64,000 bases of DNA from the NCBI RefSeq assembly GCF_000382225.1, contig NZ_KB907800.1, positions 248,001 to 312,000 of the forward strand, in the 5' to 3' direction. Positions 14,608-49,445 of this stretch are shown here, piece after piece. The notes below the pieces were generated by a model. The model was not told the DNA's origin and made no database searches. It saw nothing but the letters and a program-made list of their open reading frames with translations. Source of the stretch: Hymenobacter aerophilus DSM 13606 (lineage in GTDB: Bacteria; Bacteroidota; Bacteroidia; Cytophagales; Hymenobacteraceae). Both the position numbers and the translations under genes were made by a program. The first letter of the stretch is position 1. Every line of letters starts with the position of its first letter.

Positions 14608-14795
14608 GTGAGATGGTGAGATGGTGAGGTGGTGAAATGGTGAGTTTGACGTGCTGTCATCCTGAGCGCAGCGAAGGACCTATACGGAAGCTGATATCAG
14701 ACTATAGCTTCCGTATAGGTCCTTCGCTGCGCTCAGGATGACAGGCCCCCCGAACATCAAACTCACCACCTCACCATTTCACCATCTCACCTATT
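14604..14795. repeat. Nested palindromic element: GGTGAGAT arms around a 39-bp hairpin
   Basis: The outer arms (about 14604-14646 and 14757-14795) are inverted tandem runs of GGTGAGAT/GGTGAAAT. Inside lies a perfect 39-bp inverted repeat (14654-14692 and 14706-14744) that begins CTGTCATCCTGAGC and ends at the loop with CGGAAGCT. The left arm contains the sprA stop codon. Confidence 0.93.
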
Positions 14796-35719: not shown

Positions 35720-36519
35720 GCACGCATTACACCACGCTGGGCCTGACTTCCAGCGCTTCGGAGGCGGATATCCGGCGGGCGTACCGGCAACTGGTGTGGA
35801 TTACGCACCCCGACCGCACCCCCGATCCGGCCGCCCACGCCCGCTACCTGGCCGTGAACGATGCCTACGAAGTGCTGAGCAACCCTGCCCGCCGCGCCGC
35901 CTACGATGCGGCGCTGGAGTGGCGGGCTACGGCCAGGCCCAAGCCTGTTACCCCGCCGGTTGCGCAACGGCCGGGCGCTCAGCCAAGGGGCCGCCCCCCG
36001 CACTCCGCCCGCCAGCCCCCGCCCAACCGGCCGCACGGCCGGACCACCCCCCGAACTGCCAGCTTCGACCTGCGGCCTTATGCCCACCTTATTCGTGGAT
36101 CTGGCCGGGTGCTGCTGGCTTTTGGATTGCTACTGCTGCTCGACTACGCTTTTTTGTATCGTACTACTTCTACCCGCGTGCTGGCCCTCAATGTCGTATC
36201 ATCCAGCTATCCGGCTGTTATGGTTACCACGTGGGGGCGCATCCCCGTTTACAGCCCGGTACCGGCCAACCTGCTTCAGCTTCCGCTGGAGGTACGGTAC
36301 ACCCCGATCTTCCGATTCACTCGCTCGGCCCGGCTACCTAACGGCCAGCACCTAGTGGTAGAAAACCCGGAATCCACCTTACTGGGCTTTGTTTACTTCA
36401 TGCTTCTGCTGGCGCTGCTAAGTCAATGGTTGTGGCTTAGCCTGTCCATGCGGCTCAACTCGCTGATGCTGGCCAGCGCCACGGCAGTTTTGATTGTGCT
36501 ACTTATGCTGCGCCACTGA
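35716..36519 (+). CDS. J-domain membrane protein
   Basis: The 267-residue protein has an N-terminal J domain (about 1-68: 'YTTLGLTSSASEADIRRAY', HPD tripeptide in 'THPDRT', 'AYEVLSNPARRAAYD'), a Pro/Arg-rich linker (about 75-120) and three hydrophobic segments: 'VLLAFGLLLLLDYAFLY', 'LLGFVYFMLLLALLSQWLW' and 'LMLASATAVLIVLLML'. It should recruit and stimulate a DnaK-type Hsp70 at the inner membrane. There is no Gly/Phe region or zinc-finger domain, so it is a class III J protein. Together with the overlapping upstream gene it forms a two-gene unit. Its last three codons and stop are part of a 31-bp palindrome. Confidence 0.88.
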   Translation: MSTHYTTLGLTSSASEADIRRAYRQLVWITHPDRTPDPAAHARYLAVNDAYEVLSNPARRAAYDAALEWRATARPKPVTPPVAQRPGAQPRGRPPHSARQPPPNRPHGRTTPRTASFDLRPYAHLIRGSGRVLLAFGLLLLLDYAFLYRTTSTRVLALNVVSSSYPAVMVTTWGRIPVYSPVPANLLQLPLEVRYTPIFRFTRSARLPNGQHLVVENPESTLLGFVYFMLLLALLSQWLWLSLSMRLNSLMLASATAVLIVLLMLRH

Positions 36520-36583
36520 GGAACCGGCAAAAAGGCCCACGACAGTTGCCGCGGGCCTTTTTGCCGGTTCCTCAGTGGCGCAG
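36508..36583. terminator. Long bidirectional terminator, perfect 31-bp stem
   Basis: The arms 36508-36538 and 36553-36583 are perfect inverted copies with a 14-base loop. The left arm begins inside the J-domain gene (its last codons CTGCGCCAC and TGA). Runs of A5 and T5 inside the stem give a terminator core for both strands between the J-domain gene (+) and terC (-). Confidence 0.85.
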
Positions 36584-42038: not shown

Positions 42039-42126
42039 TGTCATCCTGAGCGCAGCGAAGGACCTATACAGAAGCTAACACCAGATAACAGCTTCTGTAT
42101 AGGTCCTTCGCAAGCTCAGGATGACA
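42039..42126. repeat. Palindromic element, core class GTCATCCTGAGC, no tandem arms
   Basis: Inverted arms 42039-42076 and 42090-42126, 37-38 bases with a small difference near GCGCAGCG/GCTTGCG. Loop-proximal CTATACAGAAGCT is almost the same as in the core at 14654-14744. Confidence 0.9.
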
Positions 42127-45500: not shown

Positions 45501-46144
45501 GCGCGGGCAACCTGCTGGGCGGCGAGCAGTCGGGCTTCATCAACGACCTGGGCTTCGAAACCTACCACCAGATTCTGGACGAGGCCGTGACCGAGCTCAA
45601 GGAAACCGAGTTCCGCGACCTGTTCCTCGGCGACCCCACCCAGCGCCTGCAGGAAGCCGCCAAAACGGCCGGCGTGCAGCAGTGCAATATCGAAACCGAC
45701 CTGCAGGTGCTGATTCCCGACGCCTACGTGAGCAACGTGTCGGAGCGGCTGCAACTCTACAGCAAGCTCGACCGCGCCAAAGGCCCCGAGCAGCTGCGCA
45801 AGCTGCTGGCCGGCATGACCGACCGCTTCGGCCCGCTACCGCCCGAAGTGGAGCAGCTGGCCGACATTGTACGCCTGCGCTGGCAGGGCCGCCACGCCGG
45901 CTTCGAGCGCCTGAGCTACAAGAAAAACGTGCTCAAGGGCTACATCCCGGCCGAAAACAACGAGGCCTACTTCCAGGGCGACACCTTCGGTAACATCCTC
46001 TCCTACGTGCAGACCCACCCCAACTCGGCCAGCATGAAGGAGCGCAAGCAGCAGCTCGTCTTCAGCATCAGCAACGTGCCCAGCGTGGCCGCCGCCAAGC
46101 GCCTGCTCAGCGAGCTAGGCAGCGAGGAGCCGGTGGGGGTGTAA
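42593..46144 (+). CDS. mfd: Transcription-repair coupling factor with in-frame palindromic insertion
   Basis: Mfd displaces stalled RNA polymerase and recruits UvrA. The 1,183-residue protein contains the UvrB-like N-terminal module, the RNA-polymerase-interacting domain ('DYVTHQDYGIARFAGL'), the SF2 translocase with Walker A 'GDVGFGKTEVAIRAA', DEEQ box 'LVIDEEQKFGV', 'SATPIPRTLHFSLMG' and 'HQMRGRVGRS', and the C-terminal TRCF domain. Residues about 134-173 are a Pro/Gly/Glu-rich insert ('PPTPSPGGEGE', 'PPSPPGEGGRGGEA') that interrupts the conserved run 'LMRAEVLNRLNSR' to 'LIVTYPEALFEKV' and is encoded by a palindrome. The start is uncertain: TTG at 42593 is the only candidate that keeps the N-terminus. 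It converges on the AT-rich GHKL gene. Confidence 0.93.
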   Translation: MQVSDFLKLYLLDPTVLTVGARLNPATRRTLGKAADKAEAPARLHLRGLVGSQDAVLAAALHHSYPQQPQLFILHDREEAAYFLADLQHLLPNEEPLLFPSSYKRPYAFDETENANVLMRAEVLNRLNSRTSVPHPPTPSPGGEGEPSDKKPVTTTGRQAPPSPPGEGGRGGEAPGPLIVTYPEALFEKVINKKSLVANTFIVKVGDRLDVNFISEMLAEYDFERSDFVYEAGQFAVRGGIVDIFSYANELPYRIELFGDEVETIRTFDPESQLSVDKKSQVSIIPNVQTKLLQETREAFLDFIPGDTAIWAKDLRQTLDVVTESFERAEADFQQLLAGAAGMQIVSKPEDLFESGKSFKKLLEGFAIAEFGKRFYFKSGEDFQFTSKPQPSFNKDFGRLVKNLHENQQAGYTNIIAAESVRQADRLRTIFDELDNNVQFQHLLLGLREGYIDDTLQLLVYTDHQLFERFYRAQEGRKFSKKKALTLKELRTLVPGDYVTHQDYGIARFAGLTQVEINDRMQEAIRLIYRDDDVLTVSIHALHKIAKYSGAEGTPPTMSKLGSPEWENKKKAVKKKVKDIAAELIRLYAKRKTAPGHAFAPDSFMQAELESSFIYEDTPDQGKATEDVKHDMEQPHPMDRLVCGDVGFGKTEVAIRAAFKSVADGKQVAVLVPTTILAMQHYKTFRERLANLPVTVEYVNRFKSTKQIKETLGRVAEGKTDILIGTHRLTNKDIKFKDLGLLVIDEEQKFGVKTKDKLKELKVNVDTLTLSATPIPRTLHFSLMGARDLSVIATPPPNRQPVQTELHVFDELLIRDAVAREIKRGGQVFFVHNRVKDIEELAGMIVRLVPDARVTYIHGQMEGDKLEKRMMKFVDGDYDVLVSTNLIESGLDIPNANTIIINRAHLFGLSDLHQMRGRVGRSNKKAYCYLLTPPVAGLPSDARKRLSTLEEFSDLGDGFKVAMRDLDIRGAGNLLGGEQSGFINDLGFETYHQILDEAVTELKETEFRDLFLGDPTQRLQEAAKTAGVQQCNIETDLQVLIPDAYVSNVSERLQLYSKLDRAKGPEQLRKLLAGMTDRFGPLPPEVEQLADIVRLRWQGRHAGFERLSYKKNVLKGYIPAENNEAYFQGDTFGNILSYVQTHPNSASMKERKQQLVFSISNVPSVAAAKRLLSELGSEEPVGV
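42992..43112. repeat. Palindromic element inserted in frame inside mfd
   Basis: Left arm 42992-43032 starts CCTCACCCCCCAACCCCC and itself contains a small hairpin; right arm 43069-43112 is its approximate reverse complement ending GGGGGGGTGAGG. The centre (43033-43068) is ordinary sequence. The element length keeps the reading frame and encodes about 40 residues. Confidence 0.92.
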
Positions 46145-46146
46145 TG

Positions 46147-46218
46147 AAAATAGGCGTATAAACGAGAGAAGGCAGCCCCCAAGCGGAGGCCGCCTTCTCT
46201 CGTTTATACGCCTATTTT
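46147..46218. terminator. Bidirectional terminator, perfect 27-bp stem that includes the end of the GHKL gene
   Basis: Arms 46147-46173 and 46192-46218 are perfect inverted copies (A4 T-rich ends) with an 18-base loop. The right arm contains the last codons and stop of the minus-strand GHKL gene (Lys-Ile-Gly-Val-stop). The left arm therefore mirrors them directly after the mfd stop codon. Confidence 0.88.
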
Positions 46219-48243
46219 TGTTAATTTATCTGTGACATTGCTAAAATCAATTTCAGGAAAATCCTCTTTTAACACAGCTGACACATCAACATCTTCTAAT
46301 TGTAGTTCGGTCGAAAGATAACTTAGCTTTCTTTTGTTTATTTCAATAATATCCTGCCATTCAACAACCCATATTTCAATATTTTTTCTTTCATTTTGAG
46401 AATAAAAATATGGCTTACCAACAGGCTTTGATATACCTTTTAATTTATAACTTGTCATATTGGAAATACTAGATGACACAAGAATAATTTTGTAATTTAT
46501 TTTTGGAAAGAAAGCCAATGTATCTATTTCATATGCATATCTTTCAGCTTGCAATAATTCTTTATTTGATATTTTTACTCCTGGAGCTTTCAATTCAACA
46601 ATAAGCACCTCTCTATTAGAAGCATCTAATATCTTTTCATTAAACAAAAAAAGATCAGTTATAGAGCGAATATCATTATCTTCTATATGAACAAAATTAT
46701 CATCTTCTTCACTCGGCGTGAATTTAAACAACTTATTTCTCAGAGCAGTTAAGTTATTTTTAAGACTTTTATCTGAAAGTAAACGGGTTGATGTATCGAC
46801 ATATTCCTCACCAAATATCCATAACATTTTCTCAACTACTTTATGCAATTGCGTTCTTTCTTTAACATATTTAGATGTTTTCGAGCTGACTAATGACTCT
46901 AAAAGCTCCAATTGATGCAGTCTTTTAGACACTCTATCGGAAAAATGTATAACCTCCTCTAAACCTGTTTTCTCTAATAGACAATTAAATTTTTCAACTG
47001 TTTCATCATCTAGTTTTAATATTTCACTAACAAGTGGCAAAGTTCCATCAGTAACAAGTGCCCTATTAATTAATGGAAATATTATCTCCCTCAAATCATT
47101 ATTCTCTTCTATTAACTTATACTTATTCTCAACTAAATATGCTAGTTTATCAAACATTACTCCTTGAGCGACAGAGGCAATGTCTTCAGAAGGGTAATAT
47201 TTATCTTCTTGTAGTCGAGTTGTGAACTTTTCAAAAGCTTCATTCTTTATCTTAAAAAATGAAGCAACTTCATTTCTAATAAATTTCTTCAAATCAGCTT
47301 TGTCAGTATCTATATCTGACAAATCCATATCTCTAAATATATTACCTTGAAAGAATTCAGCATTTACGTATACAATCCATGTACCTAGATCAGGGCTCAG
47401 CCAATCCGCATCAAATTTAAATCCATAAGAAACAGTTTGTATTCCAGCATTATCTACAGTTAAAAATACTTTTAGATCTGTTTTTTCACCTATTTTTAAT
47501 TTAGAATATGTGAAATACATTTCAAATTCATCTTTTTTATTATCAATATATTTTCTAACTATTCGTTCAGGCTCACCATCAATAAATAACTTTGGATCAA
47601 CTAATATATCATTTACATAAATATTTATTTCTTTGTTAAAAATTTTCAACATGTATTTTTCAAATAAAGAAATAAATATTTTTTCAAATGCAAAATCTAA
47701 TGACAATTTCTTTTTCTTATTTTCATTCACAGCAACAGAATCATATATATTATCTATTCTGACCTTGTAATAGGTGTTATTTGCAACATTATTAGCAAGA
47801 TATTCACTATCTATATCTAAATCTATATCCGAAACATTAGAATTTCCATCAAAATCATGCTCATTTAACACAAAACTTAATTTTGACTTGAATCCACTAT
47901 CTCTATCATATGCAAGAGATTCGATAGTAACTTTGGCACCAATTTGAAGAGCTGCAAATCGACCAATTCCTTTGCCACCTACTTTATTATTTGTACCTAT
48001 TTCCAGTAATTTGTTGTCTATATCAGAGACGGAAACCCCTATTCCATTATCAATCACTTCTATATTTGATATAAATGGACTAAAAATGTTATTAGAATCA
48101 CCATATTCTATATTTATGTGTATTTCTGTTGCTTCAGCTTGTATGCTGTTATTTATCAATTCAGAGAAAGCAACGAACGTGTCTCTGTATTGCGCAAATA
48201 TATCTTTTATTACACGCGAATTAGTTGAGAGTTTCTTTTTCAT
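46204..48243 (-). CDS. GHKL-type ATPase with C-terminal PD-(D/E)XK-like nuclease domain, AT-rich
   Basis: The 679-residue protein has an N-terminal GHKL (Hsp90/MutL/MORC-like) ATPase domain: N box 'FSELINNSIQAEATEI' (Glu 28, Asn 31/32), G1 'VIDNGIGVSVSD' (Asp 65), G2 'NKVGGKGIGRFAALQIG' (about 86-102). The middle is helical. Near the C-terminus, 'SITDLFLFNEK' (Asp 530), 'REVLIVELKAPG' (Glu 550, Lys 552) and 'LLQAERYAYEI' fit a PD-(D/E)XK nuclease core, which I infer from the pattern only. The gene is strikingly AT-rich (lines counted at 20-33% G+C against about 65% nearby), so it is probably acquired. ATG at 48243 is preferred because the GHKL N-terminus begins there. It stands alone. An antiphage role is plausible but unproven. 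Confidence 0.85.
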   Translation of the reverse strand: MKKKLSTNSRVIKDIFAQYRDTFVAFSELINNSIQAEATEIHINIEYGDSNNIFSPFISNIEVIDNGIGVSVSDIDNKLLEIGTNNKVGGKGIGRFAALQIGAKVTIESLAYDRDSGFKSKLSFVLNEHDFDGNSNVSDIDLDIDSEYLANNVANNTYYKVRIDNIYDSVAVNENKKKKLSLDFAFEKIFISLFEKYMLKIFNKEINIYVNDILVDPKLFIDGEPERIVRKYIDNKKDEFEMYFTYSKLKIGEKTDLKVFLTVDNAGIQTVSYGFKFDADWLSPDLGTWIVYVNAEFFQGNIFRDMDLSDIDTDKADLKKFIRNEVASFFKIKNEAFEKFTTRLQEDKYYPSEDIASVAQGVMFDKLAYLVENKYKLIEENNDLREIIFPLINRALVTDGTLPLVSEILKLDDETVEKFNCLLEKTGLEEVIHFSDRVSKRLHQLELLESLVSSKTSKYVKERTQLHKVVEKMLWIFGEEYVDTSTRLLSDKSLKNNLTALRNKLFKFTPSEEDDNFVHIEDNDIRSITDLFLFNEKILDASNREVLIVELKAPGVKISNKELLQAERYAYEIDTLAFFPKINYKIILVSSSISNMTSYKLKGISKPVGKPYFYSQNERKNIEIWVVEWQDIIEINKRKLSYLSTELQLEDVDVSAVLKEDFPEIDFSNVTDKLTKIGV

Positions 48244-48776
48244 TTTAGCTGTACATGAGTGGGGACGCGCGAAGGTATAATAATTAGGCAAATTATCAGT
48301 ATAGTAGCCATTCTTTCGGGGCAATCTTAAGTGGCATGAGCTTGTTGCTATCATTCATGATAATGGTAACGCTATATCTCACTTACTGTATTGCGTGAAG
48401 GCGAAACTGCGCCGGGTGAAGCCTCTCCCGTCTCTTTCAACGCTACTCCCAAACTCGCCACAATCACTGCCGCCGCTGCTACATCCTCTGCGGCGGCGAG
48501 CTGAGGGCGTTGCGCGACCGATTGAACCCATAACGTGAGCATTTGAACCTATAACGTGGCTCATCGAACCCATAGCGCGGCCGTTCGAACTTATAACGTG
48601 GCGAGTTGAACCCGTAACGCGGCCGTTGAAGTCGTCGCGGGGCGGTGTGGGGTCGTAGCGGGCGCCGGTAGGTCTGTCGCGGGGGTGGCGGCCGAAATAT
48701 TCCTGGGCTTCACTGGCGCATTGTATGGCGGCGGTTTCTATATTACGCCTACAAACCCACTAACCCTCATTCCCTT
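48244..48776. other. 533-base intergenic region holding a 21-bp tandem array
   Basis: The part next to the GHKL gene (48244-48370) is AT-rich like that gene and probably carries its promoter. From about 48380 composition returns to the host level. The 21-bp repeats at 48521-48624 are the only clear structure. A minus-strand frame is open from about 48750 to 48379 but has no good start codon. Confidence 0.6.
48521..48624. repeat. Degenerate 21-bp tandem repeat, five clear units
   Basis: Units start at 48521 (20 bases), 48541, 48562, 48583 and 48604, with consensus near NTTGAACCCATAACGYGGC. More decayed units may extend to about 48690. Read on the minus strand the repeats encode heptapeptides such as 'SHVIGSN', 'AHVMGSI' and 'RHVISSN'. 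Confidence 0.85.
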
Positions 48777-49445
48777 ATGAACGATACCCAACGGGCGAAG
48801 CTGGCCATGCTGCAAGCCACTCTGGCCGTGCTCGACCAGCACGCCGCCCTCTACGCCACCAACCAGGCCCTCGGCAAAGCCCACGACGAGCTGGCCGCCC
48901 TCGTCGCGGCCCTCGACCCCACCGCCGACCGCCAGCGCAACGCCGTGACGCCCGCCCAGCCCGGTGCCGTGAAAAAGCAAACCAAGCAGCTGCTGGCCCG
49001 GCGCGCCGCCGAAGTTGCCGCCGCCCTGCTGGCCCTGGCCGACGAGCAGGACGACATCGGCCTGCACACCGACGCCGACTACACCGAAAAGCAGCTCCAG
49101 CGCCAACCCGACAACGACCTGCTGCGCATCGGGGCCAACCTGCACCGCCGCGCCACCGAGCACGCCCAGCCCCTGGCCCAGCAAAACGTAACGCCCCAGG
49201 AGCTCCAGGACCTGCAAGCCGCCCTCGACGCCTTCCGCCAGGAACTGACCACGCCCCGCACCGCCGTGGCCACCGGCAAGGCCCTCAAGCAGCAAATCAG
49301 CGCCGACTTGCGCCAGGCCAACAACCTGCTCCGCAACCGCCTCGATAAGTACCTGCTGCGCTACCAGCGCCCCCAGCCCGCCTTCTATACCGCCTACCAG
49401 TCGGCCCGCCAAACCATCAACACGGCCGCCCGCAGTGAGAAGTGA
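48777..49445 (+). CDS. Hypothetical helical protein
   Basis: The product is a 222-residue Ala/Gln/Leu-rich protein predicted to be almost all helix ('AKLAMLQATLAVLDQHAALY', 'LGKAHDELAALVAALDP', 'DLRQANNLLRNRLDKYLLRY'), compatible with four-helix or coiled-coil packing. There is no signal peptide. I do not recognise a family. ATG at 48777. The last residues 'RSEK' and the stop are encoded by the first unit of the GAGAAGT tandem array that follows. Confidence 0.78.
   Translation: MNDTQRAKLAMLQATLAVLDQHAALYATNQALGKAHDELAALVAALDPTADRQRNAVTPAQPGAVKKQTKQLLARRAAEVAAALLALADEQDDIGLHTDADYTEKQLQRQPDNDLLRIGANLHRRATEHAQPLAQQNVTPQELQDLQAALDAFRQELTTPRTAVATGKALKQQISADLRQANNLLRNRLDKYLLRYQRPQPAFYTAYQSARQTINTAARSEK

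What the first reader, a model, noticed from the sequence alone, without database searches (positions are those of the whole stretch)
46204..48243. Isolated AT-rich GHKL ATPase with a probable PD-(D/E)XK nuclease end: candidate single-gene defence system
The gene differs sharply in base composition from all others (20-33% G+C in counted lines). It sits between mfd and a tandem array, and combines a complete GHKL ATPase site with a C-terminal Asp...Glu-x-Lys pattern followed by a Gln-Ala-Glu segment, as in PD-(D/E)XK nucleases. MORC-like GHKL proteins are known to join restriction-like systems, but I do not know this exact two-domain protein as a named system.
Basis: partly seen in the sequence, partly recalled or inferred. 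Interest (0 to 1): 0.7.

Follow-up and report, generated by a model that had tools for sequence, protein, structure and literature searches.

The report
GHKL-gated Shedu-type anti-phage nuclease
This foreign, AT-rich gene encodes an ATP-driven DNA-cutting enzyme of a type recently shown in cholera bacteria to protect against viruses, and it sits in a spot of the chromosome where related bacteria keep swapping defence genes in and out; it is a fairly ordinary new member of a known kind.

Summary
An intact, AT-rich (29% G+C) minus-strand gene at 46204-48243 encodes a 679-aa protein with a complete GHKL ATPase site and a C-terminal PD-(D/E)XK nuclease (D530, E550-x-K552, Q565, Y569). These residues hold in about 50 close relatives (27-47% identity, mostly Bacteroidota) and in a more distant sister clade. 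AlphaFold2 of the C-terminal half (pTM 0.83) matches E. coli and B. cereus Shedu nucleases best (Z 9.9 and 8.9). The architecture is known: it is the paraMORC3 family predicted in 2008, and VcSduA, a GHKL-Shedu protein (type I-D), was shown in 2025 to be a single-gene anti-phage system that needs both active sites. New here: the protein belongs to a separate, well-supported clade with an ATP lid about 12 residues shorter, which Pfam SduA_C and PADLOC miss. The gene also occupies a hotspot: in 21 genomes read, mfd is conserved to about its stop codon, then the sequence differs; several carry other known or candidate defence genes there. Relatives elsewhere sit beside restriction, Hachiman, AbiE and SIR2 genes. 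Likely role: ATP-gated restriction of incoming phage DNA. Trigger unknown.

The parts
46204..48243 (-). Gene of the GHKL-nuclease protein (679 aa), intact, stand-alone
47815..48177 (-). GHKL ATPase domain core (residues 23-143; E28, N32, D65, G67, G69, K87, G92, G94); ATP lid of 18-19 residues between the two glycine motifs, against 29-31 in the sister clade
   Evidence: Pfam; alignment; spacing; Foldseek to MORC/Hsp90/MutL
46309..46866 (-). PD-(D/E)XK nuclease region (about residues 460-645; E462, D530, E550, K552, Q565, Y569)
46142..46223 (.). Near-perfect inverted repeat (-57.6 kcal/mol, z -13) between the convergent mfd and GHKL genes, probably a two-way terminator; its right arm holds the last codons and stop of the GHKL gene
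46145..48520 (.). Variable segment: from the mfd stop codon to the 21-bp array, replaced by other genes in related genomes
48521..48630 (+). Array of about five 21-bp units at the right border of the variable segment; similar 21-bp arrays precede the same flank gene in relatives

Best explanation
A stand-alone anti-phage enzyme of the paraMORC3 / GHKL-Shedu kind. Proposed working: the N-terminal GHKL domain binds ATP and dimerises, closing a clamp formed with the middle (S5-like) domain around DNA or a protein-DNA complex. This conformational switch licenses the C-terminal PD-(D/E)XK nuclease to nick or cut invading phage DNA, so the phage is restricted and the cell survives. Shown here: both catalytic sites present and conserved, the nuclease fold, the defence-gene company and the swapped genomic spot. 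Shown elsewhere for VcSduA: both sites needed for phage protection, no cell sacrifice. Inferred: dimer clamp, gating, DNA as the target, and the trigger (perhaps DNA ends, as for E. coli SduA).
For: Catalytic residues of both domains conserved in 50 close and 35 distant relatives. Full-length profile match between the two clades, E 2.7e-73. C-terminal profile matches GHKL proteins that score above the Pfam SduA_C cut-off, E 4.5e-17, and those match classical Shedu, E 9e-8. Best structural matches are E. coli SduA (Z 9.9, 167 aligned) and B. cereus Shedu (Z 8.9). Nearest neighbours of relatives include type I RM, Hachiman helicase, AbiEii, SIR2 and DISARM methylase, against three weak family hits among 39 window genes. 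The spot after mfd holds PD-T4-2/Nsn-like, HEC-01, HEC-03 and AriA/OLD-like genes in related genomes. VcSduA E27A and K557A lose defence (PMC12137116). Homologues also on plasmids and in prophages.
Against: No phage data for this protein, and none found for any member of its own clade. It does not itself reach the Pfam SduA_C or PADLOC SduA models. Direct profile comparison with a small set of classical Shedu is weak (E 8e-4, 24% probability). Structural Z is only about 1 above the FokI-like nickase N.BspD6I. The full-length model has low overall confidence (pTM 0.52), so domain arrangement is not shown.
Confidence: 0.78

Rival explanations
1. MutL/MORC-like partner of a restriction-modification system encoded elsewhere in the genome: the ATPase loops DNA between recognition and cleavage sites and the nuclease cuts there.
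For: paraMORCs were found by their association with RM operons, and the 2008 authors allowed for unlinked RM partners. Some relatives sit beside RM genes.
Against: The gene stands alone here; no constant partner was seen among relatives; VcSduA works alone in E. coli.
Confidence: 0.1
2. Abortive-infection effector: on infection the nuclease degrades host as well as phage DNA and stops the culture.
For: Many nucleases at such loci act this way (general knowledge), and heterologous Shedu can be toxic (PMC12904381).
Against: VcSduA protected cultures at all multiplicities of infection tested, unlike abortive infection.
Confidence: 0.08
3. DNA repair enzyme (MutL- or EndoMS-like) recruited by chance to a variable spot.
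For: The GHKL domain is nearest to MutL by sequence, and the nuclease resembles EndoMS/NucS at lower Z.
Against: Patchy presence (no close relative in the other 203 genomes of the family searched), foreign composition, defence neighbours, homologues on plasmids and in prophages.
Confidence: 0.04

Closest known systems
VcSduA (Vibrio cholerae VSP-II of the WASA lineage), Shedu type I-D
   Same: N-terminal GHKL ATPase, C-terminal PD-(D/E)xK nuclease, single gene, mobile context; equivalent catalytic residues (E27/K557 there, E28/K552 here)
   Different: Sequence not held here, so identity and clade could not be measured; the present protein is in a mainly Bacteroidota clade with a short ATP lid
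paraMORC3 family (Iyer, Abhiman and Aravind 2008)
   Same: GHKL plus S5-like module plus RE-fold domain with E-D-ExK; stand-alone members reported in Proteobacteria and Bacteroidetes
   Different: No tested difference; whether the 2008 set included this clade is unknown
Classical Shedu (E. coli SduA, B. cereus SduA)
   Same: Nuclease fold and D/E-x-K/Q motifs; single gene
   Different: N-terminal part is a non-GHKL DNA-end clamp or other sensor; no GHKL ATPase; sequence similarity only through intermediates
BbrUII/HgiDII-type GHKL restriction enzymes, MzaB
   Same: GHKL ATPase domain in a restriction or defence protein
   Different: Match limited to the ATPase (scores far below family cut-offs)

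Membership tests
paraMORC3 | N-terminal GHKL domain with intact ATP-binding motifs | tested here: met
paraMORC3 | S5 domain after the GHKL domain | tested here: inconclusive
   Foldseek aligns 400-480 columns with MORC2, Hsp90 and GyrB ATPase modules, but model confidence and TM are low
paraMORC3 | C-terminal RE-fold domain with E-D-ExK | tested here: met
paraMORC3 | Homology over the full length to other GHKL-nuclease proteins | tested here: met
   hhalign of the two clades over 624 columns, E 2.7e-73
Shedu (SduA) | PD-(D/E)XK nuclease of SduA type, by fold and by linked profiles | tested here: met
   the four best structural matches are Shedu structures; profile chain to SduA_C-positive proteins E 4.5e-17 and on to classical Shedu E 9e-8
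Shedu (SduA) | Direct match to Pfam SduA_C (DUF4263) above the cut-off | tested here: not met
   no hit for it or its clade, nor for any of the 35 sister-clade proteins; a related 608-aa GHKL protein (L008) does hit, 31.6 bits against 27
Shedu type I-D / VcSduA | Sequence relationship to VcSduA itself | not testable with these tools
   VcSduA sequence not in the collections; only residue spacing could be compared
Shedu type I-D / VcSduA | Anti-phage activity that depends on both active sites | not testable with these tools
   needs experiment
MZA (MzaB) and BbrUII/HgiDII restriction enzymes | Family score over the curated cut-off | tested here: not met
   17.8 bits against 850 and 22.6 against 550

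The most novel reading that the evidence does not exclude
The clade of this protein (about 50 members found, mainly Bacteroidota, with a consistently shortened ATP lid and invisible to current Shedu models) is a mechanistically distinct branch of GHKL-gated defence nucleases. It travels as a single gene through a previously undescribed defence hotspot, with no integrase noticed, that begins at the mfd stop codon in this genus.
Probability: 0.3. Interest if true: 0.5.

Novelty: new member of a known kind. Interest (0 to 1): 0.33.

Why it matters
It extends an experimentally validated but little-studied defence type (GHKL-Shedu) to a large clade that annotation tools miss, with ready-made mutants to test how an ATP-driven clamp gates a nuclease. 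The mfd-adjacent spot offers a simple place to look for unknown defence genes in this genus: several passengers there have no known family.

Tried and rejected
Direct sequence search of solved structures with the protein or its C-terminal profile found no nuclease; only the fold comparison did. Foldseek alone ranked other restriction enzymes first with weak scores, and Shedu came out best only in the VIA-align second look. The long hairpin after mfd looked peculiar, but long hairpins are common in this window (11 with arms of 14 or more) and none is found in the four genomes where the passenger gene runs in the mfd direction right after mfd, so a two-way terminator is enough. Homology-driven insertion of elements carrying a replacement mfd 3' end was considered because partial mfd copies lie downstream in related genomes. 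The partial copies are closest to the host's own mfd in four of five cases, so local duplication is as likely. Placing VcSduA in one of the two clades failed for lack of its sequence. A whole-genome composition control could not be run.

Full report
WHAT IS THERE. The gene is real, intact and on the minus strand, 46204-48243 (679 aa), present once in the genome. It is the only strongly AT-rich stretch of the window (0.28-0.36 G+C per kb against 0.52-0.70 elsewhere; ORF 0.29). Upstream in window order is mfd (stop at 46142-46144). Between the two convergent genes lies an 82-nt near-perfect inverted repeat whose right arm holds the last codons of the gene. To its right is a 21-bp tandem array (48521-48630) and a 222-aa gene without known family (48777-49445).

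DOMAINS. Pfam gives HATPase_c_3 at residues 23-143 (E 4e-15) and a weak HSDR_N_2 nuclease match at 521-573. Sub-threshold matches to MutL, BbrUII/HgiDII and MzaB cover only the ATPase. Scanning public genomes gave a clade of 50 full-length proteins at 27-47% identity (A3) and a more distant set at about 20-30% (A4). Invariant in A3: E28, N32, D65, G67, G69, K87, G92, G94, R95; invariant or nearly so: E462, H467, W475, D530, E550, K552, Q565, Y569. The same nuclease residues are conserved in A4. The two profiles align over 624 columns at E 2.7e-73. In a tree of 85 proteins each set is one side of a branch with SH-aLRT support 100. The spacing between the DxGxG and GxxGxG motifs is 18-19 residues in A3 and 29-31 in A4, so the ATP lid is consistently shorter in the present clade.

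FOLD. The full-length AlphaFold2 model is only fair (pTM 0.52); its N-terminal part matches Hsp90/TRAP1, MORC2/MORC4, MLH1 and GyrB ATPase modules. The C-terminal 296 residues, modelled with 81 sequences, are good (pTM 0.83). The best structural matches are E. coli SduA (8ps4, 8ps5; Z 9.9) and B. cereus Shedu (8ti9, 8ti8; Z 8.9 and 8.8), just ahead of N.BspD6I (8.8), EndoMS (8.0) and FokI (7.3). Plain Foldseek was indecisive, so the margin is small.

LINK TO SHEDU BY SEQUENCE. Neither this protein nor its clade reaches Pfam SduA_C or PADLOC SduA. But 585-609-aa GHKL proteins of the same bacterial family (for example L008) score above the SduA_C cut-off. The C-terminal profile of the present family matches them at E 4.5e-17, and they match classical Shedu at E 9e-8. 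Direct comparison of the present family with nine classical Shedu is weak (E 8e-4).

WHAT IS KNOWN. The paraMORC3 family, GHKL plus S5 plus RE-fold domain with E-D-ExK, was described in 2008, with stand-alone members in Proteobacteria and Bacteroidetes (PMC2292703). In 2025 VcSduA of V. cholerae was shown to be a single-gene anti-phage system of this architecture. E27A and K557A abolish defence, cultures survive at all multiplicities tested, and the authors place it in Shedu type I-D and propose that the GHKL domain controls the nuclease (PMC12137116). E. coli SduA senses DNA ends (PMC12904381). The finding is therefore a new member of a known kind. It should be filed as paraMORC3; 'Shedu type I-D' holds by fold and linked profiles but not by the direct Pfam test.

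COMPANY. Of 85 nearest neighbour genes of the close relatives, many match known defence families at very strong E-values: type I restriction subunits, Hachiman helicase, DpdF, AbiEii, SIR2, type II methylases, DISARM methylase, bSEFIR and others. Genes 4.5 kb or more away also include BREX PglZ, RM and Gabija genes. A control of 39 other genes of the window gave three weak families. More distant relatives also occur on plasmids and in Pasteurella prophages. They do not sit in housekeeping operons.

THE SPOT. Twenty related genomes were read at the same place. In nearly all, mfd is conserved to its stop codon and the sequence then differs at once. Right after mfd lie AT-rich genes (roughly 0.26-0.39 G+C) in the window and in L166, L167, L171, L173, L179, L181, L182 and L183. 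PADLOC recognises NsnA/PD-T4-2_A (L167), HEC-01A (L168), HEC-03B with a small second gene beside it (L183), and AriA/GajA/OLD-like ATPases (L173, L181). The closest relative (L166, mfd C-terminus 98% identical) has a different AT-rich pair there, and window and relative become alike again at about window position 48521. This is a defence hotspot in the genus; no integrase was noticed in it.

MECHANISM. Shown by sequence and fold: an ATPase site and a nuclease site in one chain, both under conservation. Taken from the literature: both sites are required in VcSduA, and it acts without killing the culture. Inferred: ATP-driven N-terminal dimerisation closes a clamp on phage DNA and licenses cutting; the trigger may be DNA ends or topology. 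The short ATP lid suggests a difference in ATP handling or dimer contacts, which is untested.

LIMITS. No experiment on this clade was found in the papers searched. Gene calls in related loci were made by longest open frames. PADLOC counts are per family, so the exact number of defence neighbours is not known.

Noticed in passing
window 46142-46145 and loci L166-L185: The 3' end of mfd is a hotspot in this genus: conserved to the stop codon, then a different set of genes in each genome, many AT-rich and defence-like.
   Followed up: partly
L166:689-2441 and L171:658-2424 (read in the mfd direction): A two-gene AT-rich pair (about 430 and 155 aa, both minus strand) without known family, in the same spot of two related genomes: candidate unknown defence system.
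   Followed up: no
L170, L171, L178, L180, L185: Extra partial copies of the mfd 3' end (48-140 codons) lie 0.9-5 kb downstream of full mfd, mostly closest to the host's own mfd; possible traces of insertion or duplication at the hotspot.
   Followed up: partly
window 48521-48630 and upstream of the same flank gene in relatives: 21-bp tandem arrays with different unit sequences but the same period precede the 222-aa gene (48777-49445), which has no Pfam family.
   Followed up: no
window 14654-14744, 36508-36583, 42055-42111 and others: Long near-perfect intergenic hairpins (arms 20-40 bp) are frequent in this genome; two of them share the segment GCGAAGGACCTATAC and look like a repeated element.
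   Followed up: no
L004, L008, L013: Other GHKL proteins of about 600-650 aa with SduA_C-like or related C-termini occur in the same bacterial family, a further GHKL-Shedu branch.
   Followed up: partly
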